A stretch of 47,883 nt of DNA from assembly GCA_026417495.1 (NCBI GenBank), contig JAOADD010000071.1, forward strand, positions 1 through 47,883. Direction: 5' to 3'. Every line of letters starts with the position of its first letter. The first letter of the stretch is position 1. Below the pieces are notes generated by a model. That model was not told the DNA's origin. It did not search any database and saw nothing but the letters and a program-made list of their open reading frames with translations. Made by a program: the position numbers and the translations under genes. This document shows positions 3,258 to 36,697 of this stretch, piece after piece. The DNA is from Ignavibacteria bacterium (GTDB lineage Bacteria; Bacteroidota; Ignavibacteria; Tepidaquicellales; Tepidaquicellaceae).

Positions 3258-4679
3258 TTATTCTTCTTGTGAAAGAATATCATCTTTAATTTTCATAAGA
3301 TATTCTTTCGCTGCATTATAATCGTTGGGAATTACCCCATCAAGGATTGCTTCTTCAATTTTCTTTTTAAGTAATCCCACTTTTTTACATGGTGGTAGGT
3401 TGCAAATTTGCATTATTTCATCTCCCCTTACTGGTGATTGAAAGTTTCTTAAGTTATCTTTTTCCTGTACTTCAAAAATTCTTTTTTCAACTTTATCAAA
3501 ATTATCTAAATATTTTTTAACTTTATCAGGGTTTTTTGATGTAATATCTGCCCTGCATAAGACAAATAAATCCTGTAAATATTCTCCAGCTTCTGTGGCT
3601 AACCTTCTAAAAGCAGAGTCGGTTACATTTTCTTCAGAAAGTGAAATTGGTCTTAAATGTAAGGAAATAAGTTTCTTTACATATTCGAGCTTATTCATTG
3701 GCAAACGCATTCTTGTAAATATATTTTTCATCATTCTTGCACCTTGCTCTGAATGCCCATGAAATGTCCAACCAATACCACTTATAAATTTTTTAGTTTG
3801 TGGTTTTGCTATATCGTGAACAAGTGCAGCAAATCTTAGCCATAAATTATCAGATACTTTGGCAACATTGTCAACAACTTGTAAGGTATGATCAAATACA
3901 TCTTTATGATGGTATTCACTCATTTGTTCGATACCAACAAGAGCAGATATTTCAGGGAAAATAATGTCCATCACTCCCGTTAAATACAGTAAATTTAATC
4001 CAATAGATGGTTTCGGAGTTTGTAATATTAAAAGAAATTCATTCGTGATTCGCTCTTGCGAAACTACAGAATCTTCTTCAAGTCTTTTTGCATATTTATT
4101 AATAGCAGATAAAGTTATTGGTTCGATTGAAAAGTTCAATTGCGATGCAAATCTAATTGCTCTAAGTATTCTTAATGGGTCATCGTCAAAAGTTTTTTCA
4201 GGATCAAGTGGAGTTCTGATGATTTTATTATCTAAGTCTTTTAATCCATTGAATTTGTCAATTATTTTATCTGGTTTAATTAATGAAATAGCAAGTGCAT
4301 TTATTGTGAAGTCACGCCTTGATAAGTCAGCTTCTAGATCTGCATATTCAACTTTGGGTTTTCTTGATTTTCTGTCATAACTTTCTTTTCGTGCAGATGC
4401 AAATTCAAGTTTAAAGTCTTCATAATGGATTAAAGCTGTACAAAAATTCTTATAGACAGCAAGAAGTTTTACATTAAGTTCTTTTGAAACCTCTTCTGCA
4501 AATTTTATTGCATCACCAACTATCATGAAATCTATATCATTTGAGTCAATACCAAGTAATCTATCCCTTACATATCCTCCAACAAGATATACTTTATAAT
4601 TTTTCTTTTTCGCAATAGATTTTATTTTCTTTATAATTGGTTTAGATATTATTTCTTTTATATTAACCATATTTAGCAT
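3258..4679 (-). CDS. cca: CCA-adding tRNA nucleotidyltransferase with HD domain
   Basis: 473 residues. The N-terminal class II nucleotidyltransferase head carries GGYVRDRLLG (34-43) and the metal-binding DID (48-50), then RRDFTINALA (121-130) and DDPLRILRAIRFA (166-178), which recognise the incoming nucleotide and tRNA. An HD phosphohydrolase-type domain follows, with H264, H288-D289 and D378. The enzyme adds or repairs the 3' CCA of tRNAs, which both tRNA genes of this window lack. It is the last gene of the leftward run. The ATG at 4679 overlaps the stop of the metallophosphoesterase gene by 7 nt; a second in-frame ATG three codons later (4670) would avoid the overlap and is equally plausible. 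Confidence 0.93.
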   Translation of the reverse strand: MLNMVNIKEIISKPIIKKIKSIAKKKNYKVYLVGGYVRDRLLGIDSNDIDFMIVGDAIKFAEEVSKELNVKLLAVYKNFCTALIHYEDFKLEFASARKESYDRKSRKPKVEYADLEADLSRRDFTINALAISLIKPDKIIDKFNGLKDLDNKIIRTPLDPEKTFDDDPLRILRAIRFASQLNFSIEPITLSAINKYAKRLEEDSVVSQERITNEFLLILQTPKPSIGLNLLYLTGVMDIIFPEISALVGIEQMSEYHHKDVFDHTLQVVDNVAKVSDNLWLRFAALVHDIAKPQTKKFISGIGWTFHGHSEQGARMMKNIFTRMRLPMNKLEYVKKLISLHLRPISLSEENVTDSAFRRLATEAGEYLQDLFVLCRADITSKNPDKVKKYLDNFDKVEKRIFEVQEKDNLRNFQSPVRGDEIMQICNLPPCKKVGLLKKKIEEAILDGVIPNDYNAAKEYLMKIKDDILSQEE

Positions 4680-5524
4680 TCCAAATGTTTGATATCAATT
4701 TTTCTCATTTCCTCTTTCAAATCTATTAGTGTGAATAATTTTTTCTTAACTTGAGAAAGAGGTTTAATGCAACCTGAACTATTGATGATTTTTATATTTT
4801 GTTTTTTATATAGATTCGTATAATGTGTATGTCCATGAAGAATTAAATCAATTTTATTCTTTCTTAAATGATTAAAAACATTTCTAAAATTATGCATTAC
4901 CATCGTGTCTCTTTCAGAGTACAACCACAATCTATGCATCTCATCATAAGTCTTATTTGCAGTGTAATAGAAATGATGATGTATTACTGCAATTTTAATA
5001 TAGTGTTTATAATTCTCTTTTCTCAAAACTTTATTTAAATTTTTAATTTGAATTGAATCTACATTGCCATTTGAACCTATAGGGTTTTTATTTTGGGACC
5101 AGTGCGCAACTGAATTTATTATAATTAAAACGATATTATTGGATAATTCTTTAAATATTGGAAATGATGATGTGCCATTACAAAATAAAATTTCTGTGAA
5201 AAAACTAAGAAAATTTTTGACTCTTTTCTTGTAATCAGTGTATTTACATTGGTAGGGGAATGTGTGCGTTTTTTCTGCACCACCAAAAATTTCATGATTA
5301 CCAATTGTTACTGTTAATTTGTTGTAATCCCAATATCCATATTTTTTTAAGATTTTTTTTAGAACCCAATAATTTTTTTCGCATGGGAGGTGTATCATAT
5401 CACCAGTTATAATGATATGTTCAATTTTGTTTTTTTGAATTATTCTTACTAGTTTATCAATTTCTTTTATGAGTTTTCTATCCTTATAATCTATATGTAA
5501 GTCAGATATGTGTGCTATCTGCAT
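4673..5524 (-). CDS. Calcineurin-like metallophosphoesterase
   Basis: 283 residues containing the full set of di-metal phosphoesterase motifs: D8-x-H10 in SDLH, GD at 41-42, GNHE at 75-78, histidines at 182-184 and HGHTH at 230-234. There is no signal peptide or membrane segment, so it should be cytoplasmic. The layout recalls Icc/CpdA-type cyclic-nucleotide or nucleotide-sugar phosphohydrolases, but the substrate cannot be assigned. Its ATG directly follows the TAA of the upstream oxidoreductase gene (TAAATG), and its 3' end overlaps cca, so translation of the three genes is probably coupled. Confidence 0.85.
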   Translation of the reverse strand: MQIAHISDLHIDYKDRKLIKEIDKLVRIIQKNKIEHIIITGDMIHLPCEKNYWVLKKILKKYGYWDYNKLTVTIGNHEIFGGAEKTHTFPYQCKYTDYKKRVKNFLSFFTEILFCNGTSSFPIFKELSNNIVLIIINSVAHWSQNKNPIGSNGNVDSIQIKNLNKVLRKENYKHYIKIAVIHHHFYYTANKTYDEMHRLWLYSERDTMVMHNFRNVFNHLRKNKIDLILHGHTHYTNLYKKQNIKIINSSGCIKPLSQVKKKLFTLIDLKEEMRKIDIKHLEC

Positions 5525-6532
5525 TTATGTATCCAAAATGTAATTTTGTGATTGCTTTATTTTTTCTATTATCTCTTCTGCAACTTTTATTGCTTTTATT
5601 CCATCATCAATTGTTACAATTGGTTGTTTGTTTTCCAAGATGCATTCAAAAAATTTCATTTGCTCTATTTTCATAGGGTTTTTATGCTTAATAGGTGGTT
5701 TTTCATAGATAATCGCTTTACTAATTTCTGGTAATTTTATTTTTCTAAGTCTTATTTTTGAAACCTCTTTTAAATCTTTTAGCAGATACACTTCTGCTAT
5801 GTTTTCTTGAAAATCAAGTGATATATATGCATTCCTTTGGAATATTCGCATTTTACGCATTTTCTTCTGCGATATTCTTGAAGCTGTTACATTAACAACA
5901 CATCCATTTTTAAATTTCAATCTAGCATTTGCAATATCTATACTTTTAGTTATTAGTGGAACTCCACTTGCATCTATACTTGTCAATTCAGATTTAACTA
6001 AATTTAAAATTAAATCTATATCATGTATCATTAGGTCTTGTATCACACTTACATCTGTACCTCTCGGATTATATTGAGATAGTCGATGGCTTTCGATAAA
6101 GAGTGGTGATAAATTATATTTTTCCACTGATAATAATGCTGGGTTAAATCTTTCTATATGTCCTATTTGAATTACAATTTCTTTATCTTTAATTAATTGT
6201 TTCAATATTTCTGCTTCTTCTAATGTAGAAGTAATAGGTTTTTCAATAAATATATTTTTACTTTTTTCTATAAAATATTTTGCAATTTCAAAATGGGTGT
6301 TTGTTGGAGTTGATATTAACACTGTATTAGTTTCTTCTGATAAATCCTCAATAGTAGAAAATGTTCTTATTTTATATTTACGACTAATTTCTTTCTCCCT
6401 ATCTTTATTTATATCATATACACCTGATAATTTAATATATTTTTTCTCCTTAGTAATTTCTAGTATGTTCTTTAAATGCATTTCACCAAGGTGACCTACT
6501 CCTACTATCCCGACTTTTATTTCTTTTTTCAT
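5525..6532 (-). CDS. Gfo/Idh/MocA-family NAD(P)-dependent oxidoreductase
   Basis: 335 residues. The N-terminal Rossmann fold has GVGHLG at 11-16; EKP at 97-99 contributes the conserved catalytic-region lysine, and the C-terminal substrate domain holds GHIERFNPA (124-132) and DLMIHDIDL (166-174). Members oxidise or reduce sugars, inositols or nucleotide sugars. The GHIERFNPA form also occurs in nucleotide-sugar dehydrogenases linked to lipid A genes (GnnA-like), but no lpx gene or partner aminotransferase is present here, so that remains a possibility only. The start overlaps the stop of the CDF transporter gene by one base (TAATG), a sign of coupled translation. Confidence 0.85.
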   Translation of the reverse strand: MKKEIKVGIVGVGHLGEMHLKNILEITKEKKYIKLSGVYDINKDREKEISRKYKIRTFSTIEDLSEETNTVLISTPTNTHFEIAKYFIEKSKNIFIEKPITSTLEEAEILKQLIKDKEIVIQIGHIERFNPALLSVEKYNLSPLFIESHRLSQYNPRGTDVSVIQDLMIHDIDLILNLVKSELTSIDASGVPLITKSIDIANARLKFKNGCVVNVTASRISQKKMRKMRIFQRNAYISLDFQENIAEVYLLKDLKEVSKIRLRKIKLPEISKAIIYEKPPIKHKNPMKIEQMKFFECILENKQPIVTIDDGIKAIKVAEEIIEKIKQSQNYILDT

Positions 6533-7950
6533 TAACTATGCCCTTTAGGTTCTGAATGAATTATTATATTTGCAATAGGTGGTACATGATTTTTAAATTC
6601 ATTATATAACCTCACTTCTATTTCTTTTACTGTTTTATGCACTAAATCAAATTTAATATCTTCATCAAATTCAATATTAAATGAAATTCTAATCCCAAGT
6701 GGTGTGTCAAATATTTTCAAATCGTGAAAATGTACATCTTTATAGTCCGATATTAGTATCTTTTCGATCTGGGTTATTATATTTTTGGAATCTTTTGTGA
6801 TATCTTGTACATTATCTATTATACTAGCTGGTGGATCTAAATGTATGTGAACATATTCAATTTCTTTCAATTCGTTTTTTATTTTTTCTTCAAGGGATGT
6901 GATTTGTTTGTGAGCAGAGTTTAAATCATTATTTGAATCTATTTCTATATGGATATCAGTATAGTACTTATCATTGATTTTATAAGTGTACAAATCATGA
7001 CATTTAAACCCATTCTTATTAACTATTAATCTGATTTTATCATTTAGAGTCTCGTATTTTGTTTCTACAGGTTCAGTGTGAATTACTATATCTGAATGAG
7101 GATATTTTTCTTTTATTTTATTCTCTATCTCATTTACTATTTCATGAGCTTCTGAAAACATTCTGGTTCTACCAATTAAGACTTCTGAGTCAATAAATGT
7201 TTTTCTACCTGTAACCCTTACTCTTAATGACTTTAGTCCTTCAATCATTCCATTTGATAAAATTAATTCTTTTATATCTTCATATAATCCATCTGGTGCT
7301 CTATCCATTAGTAAATTAAAAGCTCTTTTTGTTAATTTTAAGGTAGTGAGAAATATTATGACAGAAACTATGATTGCTGCTATCGGATCTGCTAAAGGGA
7401 CATCTTTATAAAGAGGTGGGATCTTGTAGTATGTGAAAACCATACTTATCAAAACAAATATTGAACTTAGTATATCGGAAGAGAAATGTAAGGAATCTGC
7501 TTCTAAAGCTTGCGAATTTGTTTCTCGCGCTACTTTCATCAGGGCACGTGCGCGAGAATAATCTATGCCTATACATACAATTATTACTGTAAATATCCAA
7601 ATGTTAATTTCAGGATGATATGGATGAATTATTCTATCGATTGATTCATAAATAAGATAACCGCACATTATAATTAATATAAGAACTTGAAATAGGGCAG
7701 ATATGCTTTCTATTTTTTCATGGCCATATTGATGTTTGCTATCTGGAGGTTTAGATGAATATTTAACTGATATTACTGTTGCAACGCAGGCTAATAAATC
7801 AATTGAGGAATGAAATAATTCAGATAGAACAGCAATACTTCCACTTATATATGCTGCTACAAATTTTATAGTGACAATAAATAACGCTGCAAAAAATGAA
7901 TTTATTGCAATTCGTAATTTCTTTTTGTTTTGAATTTCTATTTCAGTCAA
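6532..7950 (-). CDS. Cation diffusion facilitator (CDF) metal transporter with three tandem C-terminal domains
   Basis: 472 residues, against about 300 for a usual CDF protein. Residues 12-210 form the six-helix membrane domain, with metal-site residues H47 and D51 in helix 2 and D152, H155 and D159 in helix 5. Family members export Zn2+, Fe2+ or Mn2+ from the cytoplasm in exchange for protons. The cytoplasmic part contains three copies of a ferredoxin-like ZT_dimer-type unit: about 222-295, 302-375 and 392-470, ending in IHTEP (290-294), IHLDP (369-373) and IHSEP (464-468). Each copy has a histidine before its last helix (H269, H347, H438). The start is TTG at 7950; no in-frame ATG lies before the first helix. 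Confidence 0.88.
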   Translation of the reverse strand: MTEIEIQNKKKLRIAINSFFAALFIVTIKFVAAYISGSIAVLSELFHSSIDLLACVATVISVKYSSKPPDSKHQYGHEKIESISALFQVLILIIMCGYLIYESIDRIIHPYHPEINIWIFTVIIVCIGIDYSRARALMKVARETNSQALEADSLHFSSDILSSIFVLISMVFTYYKIPPLYKDVPLADPIAAIIVSVIIFLTTLKLTKRAFNLLMDRAPDGLYEDIKELILSNGMIEGLKSLRVRVTGRKTFIDSEVLIGRTRMFSEAHEIVNEIENKIKEKYPHSDIVIHTEPVETKYETLNDKIRLIVNKNGFKCHDLYTYKINDKYYTDIHIEIDSNNDLNSAHKQITSLEEKIKNELKEIEYVHIHLDPPASIIDNVQDITKDSKNIITQIEKILISDYKDVHFHDLKIFDTPLGIRISFNIEFDEDIKFDLVHKTVKEIEVRLYNEFKNHVPPIANIIIHSEPKGHS

Positions 7951-8019
7951 TACTGTTTTCTCTCAGCAGAATTAATAAACTATTTTTAAAAAGTTCTAAA
8001 TTGATCCTTTACTAATTCT

Positions 8020-8124
8020 TTACTTTTTATTACTTTTTTGTTGAAGTAATAATTTCATTTTTTCTTTTCTCTTTTTCTCTTTCTTTCGATGCTTTTTAAG
8101 GACCATTTTTTTTGGCTTATTCAT
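8020..8124 (-). CDS. 34-residue basic protein, AURKAIP1/COX24-like
   Basis: A small frame of 34 codons (ATG 8124, TAA at 8022-8020) lies between the aldolase and CDF transporter genes, on the same strand. The product is mostly Lys/Arg, with a KPKKMVLKKHRKKEKKRKEKM core. The MVLKKHRKKEKKRK pattern matches the short AURKAIP1/COX24-type proteins of Bacteroidota and relatives, which are tiny basic ribosome-associated proteins related to mitochondrial mS38. It fits the gap exactly, with 13 nt to the aldolase stop. Because the composition is so biased, homology to the family is probable rather than proven. Confidence 0.55.
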   Translation of the reverse strand: MNKPKKMVLKKHRKKEKKRKEKMKLLLQQKSNKK

Positions 8125-8137
8125 AATCTAATTATTT

Positions 8138-9205
8138 TTATGCTATTGTTATACTGTTTTCCAAATAAACATCTTGAATTAAATTTAGTAGTTTAATTCC
8201 TTCTTCCATCGGTTTCTGAAATGCTTTCCTACCTGAAATCAAACCCATACCACCAGCTCTTTTGTTTATTATAGCTGTTTTAAGTGCTTCTGTAAGATCT
8301 GTTTCTCCTTTTCCTGTTGATGCTCCACCCGAGTTAATTAAGCCAACTCTTCCCATATAGTTATTTGCTACTTGATATCTTGTCAAATCGATCGGATTAT
8401 CAGTAGTAAGTTTTTCATAAACAAGTTTATGGGTCTTGCCAAAGTTTGGTAATGCTAAATATCCACCGTTATTCTCGGGTAATTTTTGTTTTATTATATC
8501 TGCTTCGATTGTTGCTCCTAAATGATTTGCTTGCCCTGTTAAGTCTGCTGAAACGTGATAGTCTTTGTCATCTTTTACTTTGAATGCTGAATTTCGTAAA
8601 TAACACCAAAGAATTGTTACAAGTCCTAATTCATGTGCATAAGAAAATGCTTCTGATATTTCTTGTATTTGTCTTGTGGATTCTTCAGAACCAAAATATA
8701 CTGTTGCTCCTATGGCAACAGCACCCATATCGAATGCTTGCTTCACATTAGCAAATAGTATCTGATCATATTTATTTGGATATGTCAACAATTCGTTGTG
8801 ATTAATTTTCAAAATGAATGGGATTTTATGCGCATATTTCCTTGCTACTGCTCCAAGAACTCCAAGGGTAGAGGCAACTGCATTACAACCGCCTTCAATC
8901 GCTAATTTGACAATGTTTTCAGGGTCAAAATAAATTGGATTTGGGGCAAATGATGCTCCCGCAGAATGTTCTATACCTTGGTCAACAGGTAAAATTGATA
9001 AATAACCTGTACCTTTTAATCTACCTGTATTAAAAATTAGTTGTAAATTTCTTAACACTGACGGATTGCGGTCAGTATCTTTAAATACTCTATCTACAAA
9101 GTCTGGTCCTGGTAAATGAAGATTTTCTTTTGGAATTGTATTACATTTGTGCGTCAGAAGATATTCATTTTCTTTACCTAATAATTTAATGATTTCTTCT
9201 TTCAT
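8138..9205 (-). CDS. fbaB: Fructose-bisphosphate aldolase, class I (FbaB/DhnA type)
   Basis: 355 residues, the length of the archaeal-type class I aldolases. Recognisable are [12 protein letters not shown] (72-83), LKINHNELL (132-140) and [13 protein letters not shown] (231-243), whose lysine K239 is the expected Schiff-base residue, plus the phosphate-binding glycine stretches INSGGAS and GLISGRKAF. It interconverts fructose-1,6-bisphosphate with dihydroxyacetone phosphate and glyceraldehyde-3-phosphate, in glycolysis or gluconeogenesis, without a metal. It starts 4 nt after the stop of the YgfZ-like gene, so it should be co-transcribed with it. Confidence 0.93.
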
Positions 9206-11960: not shown

Positions 11961-14323
11961 AAGAAGAACAACTAAAAATTCTCTCTGAAAAACTTGAACT
12001 TGATAAAATATTAAACAAAGTTAAATCTTTTTGCTTTTCTGATTCTGGCAAGGATTTATGTGATATTACACCATTTTATACTGATGCAACAGATTTGAAT
12101 TACGAATTGAATAAAGTGCAAGAGATGAAAGATTTGATTTTAATAGAGGGTGGTCTTGAATTAAACGGTTTGAAAGATATAAGAAAAATCTTGCACAGTA
12201 TAAATATTGATGGATACTTTATTCCTGCTGATAAACTTTTATGGATTTTAGATTTTATTAAAATAGTAAAAAATGTAAAGTCTAAAATAAATTCTGTATA
12301 TAAAGCGAACTCTGAAAGATATAAACTATTATATGAATTATCTTCTAATTTGTTTTATGATAAATCAATTGAATATCACATTGAGTCAACAATTGATGAG
12401 AATGGTTTAGTGAGGGATTCTGCTTCTTTGAATTTAAAAAAAATTAGGAGTGAAATATATAAAAAATCTGAGCATTTAAGAAAAACATTAAACAAAATAC
12501 TTAATGAAGTATCTGATCAAGACCTTGTAAGAGATGATATAATTTCAATTAGAGATGGTCGTTTAGTTATACCAGTAAAAATAGAAAATAAAAGAAAAGT
12601 ACCTGGAATAATACATAGTACATCTGCTTCAGGTGTGACTGTGTTCATCGAGCCGAGTGAGACTATTGAAATGAATAACGAATTAACTGAACTTCAATAT
12701 GAAGAAAAAAGAGAGATTGAGAGAATTTTAAGGGAATTAACTCGAAAATTATCTGAAAATTATAATGAATTAATAAAAAACGTAGAAATTATTTCTGAGT
12801 TAGATTTTCTATACGCAAAAGCTAAGTATGCAATAGAAATAAATGCTTCAAAACCTGAATTTCATTTACATGAGATTAATTTAATAGACGCATATCATCC
12901 ACTACTATTGGAACAATTGAAAAAGGAGAATGTTGTCCCCCTAAATTTTCACATTGATGAAAAATCAAATACAATCATTATTACAGGACCTAATGCTGGT
13001 GGTAAAACAGTTGCATTAAAAACTATAGGACTTCTTCAATTAATGTTGCAGAAAGCTATTTTTGTCCCATGCAGTCCAGATAGTAAGTTTAGAATTTTTA
13101 ATAAAATATTTATTAGCATAGGGGATGAACAATCAATTGAGCAAAATTTAAGTTCATTTAGTTCACATCTCAAACACATAAAAGAGATTTTAGATGAAGC
13201 CGATTCTGATTCTCTCGTTCTAATAGATGAAATATGTTCGGGAACAGATCCTAAGTCTGGAAGTGCATTAGCAGAATCGATTCTTGAAAATCTTACTGAA
13301 AGAAATGCAATTACGATAGTTACAACTCATATTGGAGAGTTAAAAATATTAGCACAAAAAAATCCAAAAATTAAAAATGCATCTCTGGAATTTGATGTGA
13401 ATACAATATCGCCTAATTATCATTTTGTGATGGATGTACCAGGCCATAGTTTTACATTCGAGATTGCAAAGAAGTATCAACTACCTGATGATATAATAAA
13501 TAATGCAAAAAATCTTGTTGGTACTCAGCAAATAAAATTAGATGAAATAATACTTGATTTGGAAAAAGAGAAACAAATTTACAGAGACTTAAGGAAAAAG
13601 TATGATGTAGAAAATTCTAAAGTAGAAGGTTTGAAGAAGCTTTATGAAACTAAAATTAGTGAATTAAAAAAAAGAGAAAAAGAGGAAATAAAGAAAGCTG
13701 AAGTAAAAGTTTCTGAAATTATAAGTAATGCAAATAAACTAATAGAAAATACGATCAAAGAAATAAGGGAAGCTGAAAAATTAGACGCTAAGAAAATTAA
13801 AAGTCAATTTTCAAAAGAAGCTGAAAAAATAATAAAAGAGGTAACTTCTAAAACCAATTCAGAGCTAGAATTAAAAGAATCTTTTAGTGTTAACGATGTG
13901 GTAGTAATAAAAGATACAAATTCAAAAGGGATTGTTTTAGAAATCGAAAAAGATTCCGCAAAAGTTGATGTTAATGGTATGATTCTTAAAGTGAAACTAT
14001 CCGACTTGAAATTGTGTGAGAGTGATTCGAAAGATACGAGAATACCAAGAGGTGAAAAAGTAGATTTTAGTTTTTTAAGTAATGTCAATAGAGAACTTGA
14101 CATCAGAGGTATGTATCCTTATGAAATAGAAGGAAAAATTGAAGAATTTTTGAATGATGCTATTATTCATAATCTACCAGAAGTTCGAATTATTCATGGT
14201 AAAGGTACAGGTAAATTAAGAGCAAAGGTTCATGATGTATTAAAAAAATCGAAAGTAGTTAAATCTTTTAGATTTGGTAATTGGAACGAAGGTGACTCTG
14301 GAATTACTATTGTAGAATTATAA
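11957..14323 (+). CDS. mutS2: MutS2 / RqcU ATPase-endonuclease
   Basis: 788 residues, full length. The lever and clamp helices occupy residues ~1-300. The ABC-type ATPase follows, with Walker A GPNAGGKT at 344-351, Walker B LVLIDE at 420-425, a CSGTDP signature after it and the switch histidine in TTH (456-458). A long coiled coil (~520-620) leads to a KOW-like segment and the C-terminal Smr domain with LDIRGMYPYE and HGKGTGKLR. MutS2 lacks the mismatch-binding domain of MutS. In different bacteria it suppresses recombination or splits collided ribosomes (RqcU). The end overlaps the next start by one base (TAATG). Confidence 0.96.
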   Translation: MKEEQLKILSEKLELDKILNKVKSFCFSDSGKDLCDITPFYTDATDLNYELNKVQEMKDLILIEGGLELNGLKDIRKILHSINIDGYFIPADKLLWILDFIKIVKNVKSKINSVYKANSERYKLLYELSSNLFYDKSIEYHIESTIDENGLVRDSASLNLKKIRSEIYKKSEHLRKTLNKILNEVSDQDLVRDDIISIRDGRLVIPVKIENKRKVPGIIHSTSASGVTVFIEPSETIEMNNELTELQYEEKREIERILRELTRKLSENYNELIKNVEIISELDFLYAKAKYAIEINASKPEFHLHEINLIDAYHPLLLEQLKKENVVPLNFHIDEKSNTIIITGPNAGGKTVALKTIGLLQLMLQKAIFVPCSPDSKFRIFNKIFISIGDEQSIEQNLSSFSSHLKHIKEILDEADSDSLVLIDEICSGTDPKSGSALAESILENLTERNAITIVTTHIGELKILAQKNPKIKNASLEFDVNTISPNYHFVMDVPGHSFTFEIAKKYQLPDDIINNAKNLVGTQQIKLDEIILDLEKEKQIYRDLRKKYDVENSKVEGLKKLYETKISELKKREKEEIKKAEVKVSEIISNANKLIENTIKEIREAEKLDAKKIKSQFSKEAEKIIKEVTSKTNSELELKESFSVNDVVVIKDTNSKGIVLEIEKDSAKVDVNGMILKVKLSDLKLCESDSKDTRIPRGEKVDFSFLSNVNRELDIRGMYPYEIEGKIEEFLNDAIIHNLPEVRIIHGKGTGKLRAKVHDVLKKSKVVKSFRFGNWNEGDSGITIVEL

Positions 14324-15816
14324 TGAAAGAAAATAAAATAATAGTATTGGGAGCTGGTTTAGGTGGCCTATCGAGTGCTGTCCTTTTATCTGAATTGGGA
14401 TTTAAAGTTGAGGTATTTGAAAAGAACTTACAGGTTGGTGGTAAAATTAACGAATTCAGAAAAAATGGGTTCAGATTTGATACGGGAGCTACTTTACTCA
14501 CTATGCCTTTTATTTTGGAAAATTATTTTGAATGCTTAAAATATGATATCCGCGATTACCTACAATTAATCTCTATTCCAGTTATTTGTAAATATTTCTG
14601 GCTTGATGGGACAAATTTTACTGCTTTCAATGATAAAAAGATGCTTGGGTATGAAATAATCAATAAATTTGGTGAAAAAGAATATCAAAAATTTTTAAAA
14701 ATAATTAAGTATTCTGAAAAACTCTACAAAACTGCTTTCGAAAAATTTTTGACTACTGAATTTAAAATTATTAACTACATTAATCTTTCAGGTTTAAAAA
14801 ATTTTAAACGATTTTTAACTAATGAAAGTTATCATTCTTTTATAACAAAATATTTAACTAATCCAAAACTAATACAGGTATTAGATAGATTTACAACTTA
14901 TAATGGTTCCTCACCATATCTTGCACCAAGGTTTTTTTCAATTATTCCTTATGTTGAATTCAATTTTGGTGGTTGGTTTGTTAAAGGTGGAATATATAAA
15001 ATTATTGAATTCCTTAGAAAAGAATGTGAAAAAAGAAATATCAAAATTAATTATGGGCAGGAATTTGTTCATCTTGACCATTATGGTGGTAAGATTGTTA
15101 ATTTATACTTTAAAAATAATATTAGTAAAGAACCATATAGAATTAGTGGGTTTGATATTGTAGTATCAAATTTTACAAATAATGAAGAATTATATCCTAA
15201 ATATTTATATGAAGATACTGATTTTAATTGGTCCTTATCTGGCTTCATACTTTTTCTCGGAGTAAAAGGAAAGTCTGAAATTTTAGAACACCATAATATT
15301 TTGTTCCCAAATGATTACCACAAGGAATTTGATTACTTATTTAATAAGAAAATCCCTACTAATGATATGACAATTTACATCTCAATAAGTAGCAAAAATA
15401 ATCCTGAAGATGCACCTGAAGGTTATGAAAATTGGTTTATTCTGGTTAATTCTCCAAATTTAGAAGGTACGACAAAATGGTCTGACCTGTATTCAGAAAC
15501 TTTTAAGAACATAATTTTAAATAGGATAGAAAAATACGGAATTAAGATTAAAGATAGAGTGTTATTTTATAAGTTCTTTACCCCTGAAGATTTTCTTAAG
15601 AAATACAATGCGGAGTTTGGTTCAATATATGGAATAGCTTCTAATTCATTAAAATCATTATTTATAAGACCTGCGAATAAGTCTACTCTTTATGACAATC
15701 TTTATTTTACAGGTGGTAATGTTCACCCCGGTGGAGGGATACCTTTATGCTTTTTATCTGCAAAAATAATTACTAAATTAATTGCAAAAAAGTATGGCAA
15801 AAATTTTAGTTGTTGA
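14323..15816 (+). CDS. CrtD-like carotenoid desaturase/oxidoreductase
   Basis: 497 residues of the phytoene desaturase (CrtI) superfamily. The FAD-binding GAGLGG lies at 10-15, with the second ribose-binding region EKN and the FAD-adjacent GGKI. The C-terminal signature TGGNVHPGGGIPLC is the form seen in CrtD/CrtN-like enzymes, whereas the paralogue at 35219-36697 has THPGAGIPGV. It probably desaturates or otherwise oxidises a carotenoid intermediate in the membrane. No phytoene synthase is in the window. It is coupled to mutS2 by a one-base overlap, and its last codons overlap the start of the response-regulator gene. Exact substrate unknown. Confidence 0.7.
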   Translation: MKENKIIVLGAGLGGLSSAVLLSELGFKVEVFEKNLQVGGKINEFRKNGFRFDTGATLLTMPFILENYFECLKYDIRDYLQLISIPVICKYFWLDGTNFTAFNDKKMLGYEIINKFGEKEYQKFLKIIKYSEKLYKTAFEKFLTTEFKIINYINLSGLKNFKRFLTNESYHSFITKYLTNPKLIQVLDRFTTYNGSSPYLAPRFFSIIPYVEFNFGGWFVKGGIYKIIEFLRKECEKRNIKINYGQEFVHLDHYGGKIVNLYFKNNISKEPYRISGFDIVVSNFTNNEELYPKYLYEDTDFNWSLSGFILFLGVKGKSEILEHHNILFPNDYHKEFDYLFNKKIPTNDMTIYISISSKNNPEDAPEGYENWFILVNSPNLEGTTKWSDLYSETFKNIILNRIEKYGIKIKDRVLFYKFFTPEDFLKKYNAEFGSIYGIASNSLKSLFIRPANKSTLYDNLYFTGGNVHPGGGIPLCFLSAKIITKLIAKKYGKNFSC

Positions 15817-35218: not shown

Positions 35219-36697
35219 TTAAGATTCCTCACTATTTTCAATCAGTCTTTCTACTATTTTTGCTGAGCTTATCACTCCTGGTATTCCTGCTCCAGGGTGA
35301 GTTCCTGCACCAACAAAATATAAATTTTGCACATCCTCACTTCTATTATGCGGTCTGAAGTATGCAGATTGAAGTAATATCGGTTCTAATGAGAATGCAC
35401 TACCTAAATAAGAATTAAGTTTGTCCCTGAAATATTCCGGTGTTATAAAAAATTCAATTTCTATATTTTCCCGTAATTCAGGCATATAAGTGTATTCCAG
35501 AAATTCTAAAATTTTATTCTTATAAATTTCTCCAAAAGTGCTCCAATTTGTTCTTGAAAGTAAATTTGGAACTGGAGATAATATGTATAGACAATCCTTA
35601 CCTTCAGGTGCAATACTTGAATCGGTTGCAGTTGGCCTATGAATATATAATGAGAATTCTTCTGGTACTTTGTAATTAGTGAATATATCATCAAGTAATT
35701 CTTTATATGATTTACTGAACACAATTGAATGGTGGGGGAGAGTATCATATTTTCTTTTCAAACCAAGGTAAATTACAAAAAGTGACATACTGTATTTGTA
35801 TGAATTAATCTTATTATCAGTAAACTTTTTCCTGTACTCCCTATTAATAAGATTTTTATAAGTGTATGCGATATCAGAATTGCATATTACTACTTCTGCT
35901 TCAAATTTTTCTTTTTTATTAATGATAACACCTTTAGCTCGAGAACCCCTGCCCTTTTTATCGCATAAAATGTTTGTTACCTCTGAATCATAATATATCT
36001 TACCTCCCTGCTCAGTAAATAATTTACATAATCCTTTTACTATAGAATTTGTACCTCCCATAGCATACCAAACCCCCCATTTCTGTTCCAAATAATGAAT
36101 TAATACATAAATACTCGTAGTTTTGAATGGATTTCCACCAATAAATAAAGGATGAAAGCTAAATGCTCTTCTTAAGTATTCATTTTGTATATATTCAGAA
36201 ACGAATTTATAAACAGACTTATCAGCTCTAAGTTTTATTAAATCAGGTAGAATTTTCAACATACTCCTGAGAGTAATAAATGGTTTGTCGATTAATGAAA
36301 ATCCTTTATAAAATATTTTTTTTGAAGACTTTAAAAATTCCCTATATCCATCTGCATCATTTACGTTGAATTTAATAACTTCATTGATAATACTATCCTT
36401 ACTATAAGTGAAAATGTTTCTATCATTAAAAAATATCTTATAAAATGGTTCTAACTTGATTAATTGAAAATAATCTTTTGATTTTTTATCAAATAATGAA
36501 AATAATTCTTCAAATAACCATGGAGCTGTTATTACAGTGGGACCTGCATCAAAAGTGAACCCATCTTTTTCAAACCAAAAAGCTCTACCACCAGGTTTTT
36601 TAAGTTTTTCAAATATCGTAACTTTATGTCCTTTGGATAAACATCTAATTGCAGCTGATATTCCCCCAAATCCACTACCTATAACTACAATATTCAT
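35219..36697 (-). CDS. crtI: CrtI-type phytoene desaturase
   Basis: 492 residues. FAD-binding GSGFGG at 7-12 is followed by GGRAFWFEKDGFTFDAGPTV, read here in two parts: GGRAFWFEKDG and FTFDAGPTVIT. The C-terminal signature FVGAGTHPGAGIPGV is the bacterial CrtI form. It should desaturate phytoene towards lycopene with FAD. A second, more divergent family member lies at 14323-15816. No phytoene synthase (crtB) or cyclase is beside it. It is followed by comF with a 2-nt gap and preceded by the MerR-family gene, 53 nt away. Confidence 0.87.
   Translation of the reverse strand: MNIVVIGSGFGGISAAIRCLSKGHKVTIFEKLKKPGGRAFWFEKDGFTFDAGPTVITAPWLFEELFSLFDKKSKDYFQLIKLEPFYKIFFNDRNIFTYSKDSIINEVIKFNVNDADGYREFLKSSKKIFYKGFSLIDKPFITLRSMLKILPDLIKLRADKSVYKFVSEYIQNEYLRRAFSFHPLFIGGNPFKTTSIYVLIHYLEQKWGVWYAMGGTNSIVKGLCKLFTEQGGKIYYDSEVTNILCDKKGRGSRAKGVIINKKEKFEAEVVICNSDIAYTYKNLINREYRKKFTDNKINSYKYSMSLFVIYLGLKRKYDTLPHHSIVFSKSYKELLDDIFTNYKVPEEFSLYIHRPTATDSSIAPEGKDCLYILSPVPNLLSRTNWSTFGEIYKNKILEFLEYTYMPELRENIEIEFFITPEYFRDKLNSYLGSAFSLEPILLQSAYFRPHNRSEDVQNLYFVGAGTHPGAGIPGVISSAKIVERLIENSEES

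What the first reader, a model, noticed from the sequence alone, without database searches (positions are those of the whole stretch)
6532..7221. CDF metal transporter with three tandem ZT_dimer-like cytoplasmic domains
The 472-residue protein carries three similar cytoplasmic units ending in IHTEP, IHLDP and IHSEP (residues 290, 369 and 464), each with a histidine before the last helix (269, 347, 438). Ordinary CDF proteins have one such domain, which dimerises and senses metal. Three copies could add metal-binding or allosteric sites, or let one chain build an unusual assembly.
Basis: partly seen in the sequence, partly recalled or inferred. Interest (0 to 1): 0.5.

Follow-up and report, generated by a model that had tools for sequence, protein, structure and literature searches.

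The report
Metal exporter with three tandem tail-domains
This gene encodes an ordinary-looking bacterial metal (probably zinc) export pump whose usual single regulatory tail domain is present three times in a row, and in the relatives compared the full metal-binding site is missing from the first copy and kept in the second, which suggests that the metal-binding unit has moved away from the membrane.

Summary
The 472-residue protein at 6532-7950 (- strand) has one Cation_efflux transmembrane domain plus three ZT_dimer stretches, predicted as three units of the same alpha-beta-beta-alpha-beta order that superpose on solved CDF tails. The segments match each other far above shuffled controls. 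It is not a one-off: the D2-D3 profile is matched across its span in 66 of 197 genomes sampled from its class and 67 of 296 from its phylum (55 in one family, identified as Chlorobiaceae), and two Azospirillum plasmids match end to end. Against YiiP's dinuclear zinc site C, a five-ligand set is present in domain 1 of 0 of 54 proteins, domain 2 of 52, domain 3 of 22, and in 17 of 20 single-tail controls. Best reading: a CDF exporter whose metal-stabilised clamp/sensor sits on the second domain, domain 1 serving as coupler. A new variant of a known family; none of nine searches of an open-access library listed a paper on it. How the three domains pair could not be tested.

The parts
6532..7950 (-). 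CDF transporter gene, 472 aa, TTG start; its stop codon (6532-6534) overlaps the start codon of the next gene by one base (TAATG)
   Evidence: TIGR01297 CDF superfamily 249.5 bits, cut-off 82.35
7306..7920 (-). Transmembrane domain, residues 11-215, six helices; site A H47, D51, H155, D159; site B D70, H73, H77
   Evidence: TMD plus D1 superpose on YiiP
7066..7296 (-). ZT_dimer unit D1, residues 219-295; lacks the YiiP H232/H248 equivalents, keeps H269, H291, E293
6829..7053 (-). ZT_dimer unit D2, residues 300-374; full site-C ligand set H318, H334, H347, H370, D372
6544..6792 (-). ZT_dimer unit D3, residues 387-469; has H409, H438, H465, E467 but Asn at the H248 position

Best explanation
It is a divalent metal exporter of the CDF family, presumably proton-driven like YiiP and with zinc the likeliest substrate, belonging to a subfamily in which the single cytoplasmic domain has become three in tandem. 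Shown by sequence and prediction: the transmembrane domain and D1 match YiiP end to end; D2 and D3 are further copies of the same fold; the complete dinuclear site-C ligand set is in D2 (and in D3 in some lineages), not in D1. Inferred: the protein works as a homodimer; D1 keeps the position of the YiiP tail under the membrane and passes movement to the helices without a full metal site; D2 is the metal-stabilised clamp or sensor; D3 is a further pairing module, metal-binding in Chlorobiaceae and Azospirillum. Whether D2 and D3 pair with their counterparts across the dimer or with each other inside one chain is open.
For: CDF membership. Fold of TMD+D1 against YiiP: 8f6h_A Z 23.5, rmsd 4.7 A over 280 residues (top row 8f6k_B Z 23.8 but rmsd 9.3 A). 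D2 to a MamM CTD (6qek_A) Z 12.7, 1.6 A over 76 residues; D3 to the T. maritima CzcD CTD (6vda) Z 12.3, 1.9 A over 82. Five-ligand set (H/D/E at 232 and 248, H at 261 and 283, D/E at 285, YiiP numbering): D1 0 of 54, D2 52 of 54, D3 22 of 54, single-tail controls 17 of 20. YiiP site C: H232, H248, H283 of one protomer, H261 of the other, D285 bridging (PMC6465983, passages); a double site-C mutant lost the normal dimer (PMC10617992, passages). Site A H-D/H-D in the window protein; site B D, H, H in 54 of 54. The only Cation_efflux match in its own genome.
Against: No biochemical data. Site A does not fix the substrate: 9 of 24 ignavibacterial members have Asn for His at position 47, and a published analysis found no good correlation between site A and substrate (PMC5703985, passages). 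A site-C clamp is not undisputed even in YiiP: the single mutant D287A kept metal and structure (PMC10617992), and mutants in the salt bridge and CTD zinc binding still eluted as dimers (PMC6465983). The full-length model has pTM 0.49, so domain placement is unreliable. D1 in the ignavibacterial proteins keeps three of five ligands, so weak metal binding there is not excluded; Chlorobiaceae D1 has Asp/Glu at the 232 position in 18 of 19. D3 alone is just under the Pfam cut-off.
Confidence: 0.65

Rival explanations
1. D2 and D3 pair with each other inside one chain as a pseudo-dimer (the 261-type ligand supplied by the other domain of the same chain), leaving D1:D1' as the tail contact between chains; the sensor is then intramolecular.
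For: The D2-D3 model has pTM 0.72, a fairly definite mutual placement; in YiiP H261 comes from the partner (PMC6465983), and D3 keeps the 261 equivalent in 52 of 54.
Against: D2's own ligand set would suffice for a D2:D2' pair; D1 keeps the same three ligands as D3 in most ignavibacterial proteins, so their retention does not single out D3 as D2's partner. Model coordinates could not be inspected, so this is undecided.
Confidence: 0.3
2. The extra domains are structural spacers or docking platforms for another protein, and their histidines are a fold remnant without a regulatory role.
For: D1 has lost part or most of the site without loss of the protein; D3 varies between lineages.
Against: In D2, H at 232, 261 and 283 is invariant in 54 of 54 sequences, which include Azospirillum from another phylum, while D1 decayed in the same proteins.
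Confidence: 0.2
3. It exports another metal (Fe2+, Mn2+, Co2+ or Cd2+) rather than zinc.
For: Site A is a poor guide to substrate (PMC5703985, passages); Asn at position 47 in 9 of 24 ignavibacterial relatives.
Against: The window protein has H47, D51, H155, D159; HD-HD is found in eight clades and in zinc-assigned ones among them, though also in an iron-related clade (PMC5703985).
Confidence: 0.25

Closest known systems
YiiP / FieF (E. coli, Shewanella), PDB 3h90, 8f6e
   Same: Six-helix transmembrane domain, sites A and B, one ferredoxin-like tail aligned with D1; match over residues 5-297.
   Different: One tail domain carrying the dinuclear site C; here three, with the full site in D2 and not in D1. 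Far below the FieF equivalog cut-off (193.5 against 420 bits). YiiP site A is DD-HD (PMC5703985), here HD-HD.
Thermotoga maritima CzcD C-terminal domain (6vda, 2zzt)
   Same: Best sequence match in the PDB to the D2-D3 profile (E 2e-5) and best structural match to D3.
   Different: One domain in that chain.
MamM / MamB cytoplasmic domains
   Same: Same fold; top structural matches to D2.
   Different: Single domain in those chains; this protein scores far under the MamM and MamB equivalog cut-offs.
Azospirillum sp. B510 WP_012977263.1, 'cation diffusion facilitator family transporter'
   Same: Same architecture: Cation_efflux plus three ZT_dimer stretches; 30% identity over 98% of the query.
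   Different: Its D1 has lost four of the five ligands (Asp remains at the 248 position) while D2 and D3 both have full sets; beside ABC transporter and MgtC/SapB family genes.

Membership tests
Cation diffusion facilitator family (TIGR01297 / PF01545) | Match to the family models above curated cut-off | tested here: met
   PF01545 165.4 bits (cut-off 26.6); TIGR01297 249.5 (cut-off 82.35)
Cation diffusion facilitator family (TIGR01297 / PF01545) | Six transmembrane helices | tested here: met
   Six long helices at 3-36, 39-65, 76-108, 117-144, 147-174, 187-214 in the predicted model
Cation diffusion facilitator family (TIGR01297 / PF01545) | Four-residue transport site A in helices 2 and 5 | tested here: met
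   H47, D51, H155, D159; position 51 is D in 53 of 53 with a letter there, 155 and 159 H and D in 54 of 54
Cation diffusion facilitator family (TIGR01297 / PF01545) | Functional homodimer and metal/H+ antiport | not testable with these tools
   No multimer prediction and no experiment available
ZT_dimer domain (PF16916), three copies | Three separate matches to the domain model | tested here: met
   Three stretches in the whole protein; alone D2 43.8 bits, D3 26.5 bits against a cut-off of 26.7
YiiP-type dinuclear site C | H232, H248, H261, H283, D285 equivalents in the tail domain attached to the membrane domain (D1) | tested here: not met
   D1: 0 of 54 have the set; D2: 52 of 54
FieF/YiiP equivalog (NF050169) | Score above the equivalog cut-off | tested here: not met
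   193.5 bits against 420

The most novel reading that the evidence does not exclude
A CDF subfamily that has built a ladder of three stacked tail dimers in which the membrane-adjacent rung has given up its full metal site and acts as a coupler, while the outer rungs act as the metal clamp or sensor: a natural separation of coupling from sensing, with one or two full sites depending on lineage, seen in none of the PDB relatives found.
Probability: 0.35. Interest if true: 0.6.

Novelty: new variant of a known kind. Interest (0 to 1): 0.42.

Why it matters
What the cytoplasmic domain of CDF transporters does (hold the dimer, sense metal, or drive transport by scissoring) is still debated (passages in PMC6465983; PMC10617992). 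Here the domain next to the membrane and the domain holding the full metal site are different parts of one chain, so the two roles can be tested apart by mutation or deletion. The type is common in Ignavibacteria and in most sampled genomes of the family identified as Chlorobiaceae (76 of 86 have three or more ZT_dimer matches), a family with cultured members (recalled), so it can be tested.

Tried and rejected
Rejected: chance similarity of the three segments (five column shuffles of D2 gave E 0.014-0.59 against 3.7e-11 to 1.5e-17). Rejected: three equal metal sites. Rejected: a species-specific oddity. Rejected as membership: FieF, MntE, MamB, MamM, Cdf31, MamV, ZitB and DmeF equivalogs, all under cut-off.

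Led nowhere: Foldseek of the D2-D3 model against the PDB gave as its first row (E 2.1e-4) and several more a two-domain match to methionine adenosyltransferases, with rmsd 14-16 A and query TM-scores of 0.27-0.37 in the 50 rows shown; taken as chance. The gene neighbourhood is conserved in Ignavibacteria but points to no metal gene. Spread beyond this phylum was seen only through the plasmid collection; the one scan of named genomes used two ignavibacterial peptide patterns and returned only records titled Ignavibacteria, Ignavibacteriae, Ignavibacteriales or Bacteroidetes, so other phyla are largely untested. I did not search specifically for two-domain intermediates. Papers: nine searches were seen as listings with titles and starts of abstracts; no listed title or abstract start speaks of multi-tail CDF proteins, and the phrases 'three/two/tandem/multiple ZT_dimer' and 'ZT_dimer domains' are in 0 papers. 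Five papers holding 'two CTDs', 'additional CTD' or 'additional C-terminal domain' were checked in passages: they speak of the two tails of a dimer, of a terminal helix of MamM, or of MetNI. Most subscription-journal papers are not in that library, so absence from print is not shown. Passages only were read of PMC1868760, PMC10617992, PMC6465983, PMC5703985, PMC7170241, PMC7864060, PMC4994047, PMC10710835, PMC10932157, PMC4995437.

Rows dropped before the 54-sequence counts: repeat copies of the window (L001, L046), two fragments of 58 and 55 aa (L043, L044), and sequences identical at their own residues 101-300 to one already held. Of the 67 spanning phylum hits, the 30 best were fetched. The 20 single-tail controls were picked from hits, not at random; the three that fail the five-ligand test are L094 and L095 (very divergent) and L098 (Chlorobiaceae, Arg at 232). 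Groups: 24 ignavibacterial, 19 Chlorobiaceae (L055-L074 without L057), 9 of other families of the class, 2 Azospirillum.

Full report
The gene. The ORF at 6532-7950 on the - strand reads 472 residues from a TTG start. It belongs to the cation diffusion facilitator family by both Pfam and NCBIfam and is the only Cation_efflux match found in its own genome of 2.19 Mb in 76 contigs, 99.77% complete. The 23 related named records are metagenome assemblies titled Ignavibacteria, Ignavibacteriae, Ignavibacteriales or Bacteroidetes.

The three domains. Pfam finds Cation_efflux at 18-215 and three ZT_dimer stretches. Cut out and scanned apart, D2 has 43.8 bits and D3 26.5 bits, the latter just under the curated cut-off of 26.7. 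Profile comparison between the three segments is significant in all pairings with 20-row profiles and stronger with 54-row ones, with shuffled controls at E 0.014-0.59. AlphaFold2 gives mean pLDDT 80.8 and pTM 0.49 for the whole chain (21 sequences), with six long helices and three units of the same order, alpha-beta-beta-alpha-beta, at 222-295, 302-372 and 389-468; the D2-D3 part alone gives 84.7 and pTM 0.72 (22 sequences). TMD plus D1 superposes on YiiP (8f6h_A, Z 23.5, 4.7 A over 280 residues); D2 on a MamM tail (Z 12.7, 1.6 A over 76 residues) and D3 on the T. maritima CzcD tail (Z 12.3, 1.9 A over 82).

The copies differ in a patterned way. YiiP's site C holds two metals using H232, H248, H283 and a bridging D285 from one protomer and H261 from the other (PMC6465983, passages). 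A double site-C mutant lost the normal dimer, though the single D287A mutant did not (PMC10617992, passages), and other site mutants still ran as dimers (PMC6465983). Aligned to YiiP, 54 triple-domain proteins give: D1, H at 232 in 0 of 54 and the five-ligand set (H/D/E at 232 and 248, H at 261 and 283, D/E at 285) in 0 of 54; D2, H at 232, 261 and 283 in 54 of 54, D or E at 285 in 54 of 54, H or D at 248 in 52 of 54 (Q in the other two); D3, H at 283 and E at 285 in 54 of 54, H at 261 in 52, the full set in 22. By group: the 19 Chlorobiaceae D1 have no H at 261 and no acid at 285, H at 283 in one, but Asp/Glu at 232 in 18; both Azospirillum D1 keep only Asp at 248; D3 of both groups has all five (19 of 19, 2 of 2). 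The 24 ignavibacterial D1 keep 261 (23), 283 and 285 (24 each), and so do their D3 (24 each), with H at 232 in 3. The window's D3 is one of those three (H409), and has Asn at 248. Twenty single-tail CDF proteins from genomes of the same phylum have the set in 17, so loss of the site next to the membrane goes with the triple architecture in this sample. In the window protein the D2 ligands are H318, H334, H347, H370 and D372.

Distribution. Hits over the whole length: 21 of 40 genomes in the near sample counting its own, that is 21 of 25 in its family and 0 of 15 in the sister family; one further genome has two pieces. In the class, 69 of 197 genomes match the D2-D3 profile at E 1e-10 or better; 66 of these matches span it, three are partial, and one spanning match has a stop inside. 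In the phylum, 101 of 296 match at E 1e-3; 67 span the profile in open frames of 457-583 aa, 55 of them in one family, and the other 34 are weak partial hits such as single tails would give. Seven of seven tested genomes of that family carry the FMO antenna protein, none of six others and none of 14 controls do, hence Chlorobiaceae. In that family 83 of 86 genomes have a ZT_dimer match and 76 have three or more; the list of places was capped, but for example G279 and G339 show three in one 460-aa frame. Of 72,556 plasmid records, 1150 match and two, both Azospirillum, have one place covering 80% or more of the query; three ZT_dimer stretches were confirmed in the one scanned. A tree of the transmembrane domains of 54 triple and 20 single proteins needs one change of architecture (support 70/93, 72% of 200 bootstrap trees), with a program warning about long branches: one origin is favoured, not proved. 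Azospirillum groups with Chlorobiaceae there.

Neighbourhood. In the 21 long ignavibacterial loci (L022-L042) the Gfo/Idh-type gene is found in 21, the aldolase in 19 and the CCA-adding-enzyme-like gene in 19 (the misses are in loci cut short at contig ends), the metallophosphatase-like gene in 12. Of three loci of another family of the class (L047-L049), two show the aldolase and one the Gfo/Idh gene; the other 25 short loci (L050-L074) show none, but reach only about 0.6-1.5 kb beyond the gene. This speaks for vertical descent in Ignavibacteria and says little about function.

Mechanism. Shown by sequence or prediction: family, fold, three copies, ligand pattern, spread. Inferred: metal/proton antiport as in YiiP; a dimer; D1 as coupler; D2 as metal clamp or sensor. 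Zinc is favoured by the His/Asp site A and the histidine-rich site C, but 9 of 24 ignavibacterial relatives have Asn at position 47 and site A is a poor predictor (PMC5703985, passages). The pairing of D2 and D3 is open.

Novelty. It is a member of a known family with an architecture that no listing of nine literature searches showed (follow-up passages), although public annotation already holds such proteins under the plain family name and Pfam detects the repeats. I rate it a new variant of a known kind.

Noticed in passing
window 3258-9205: A conserved gene block in Ignavibacteria (names by eye): aldolase, the triple-tail CDF gene, a Gfo/Idh-type oxidoreductase whose start overlaps the CDF stop (TAATG), often a metallophosphatase-like gene, and a CCA-adding-enzyme-like gene.
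   Followed up: partly
window 14323-15816 and 35219-36697: Two phytoene-desaturase-like (CrtI-type, by eye) genes about 20 kb apart in one window.
   Followed up: no
L094, L095 (single-tail CDF controls): Two very divergent CDF proteins lacking the site B ligands and the 261/283 ligands of site C, on long branches of the tree.
   Followed up: no
L075 4001-6143; L076 4004-6125: On two Azospirillum plasmids the triple-tail CDF gene overlaps an MgtC/SapB family gene and follows ABC transporter genes, perhaps an operon.
   Followed up: no
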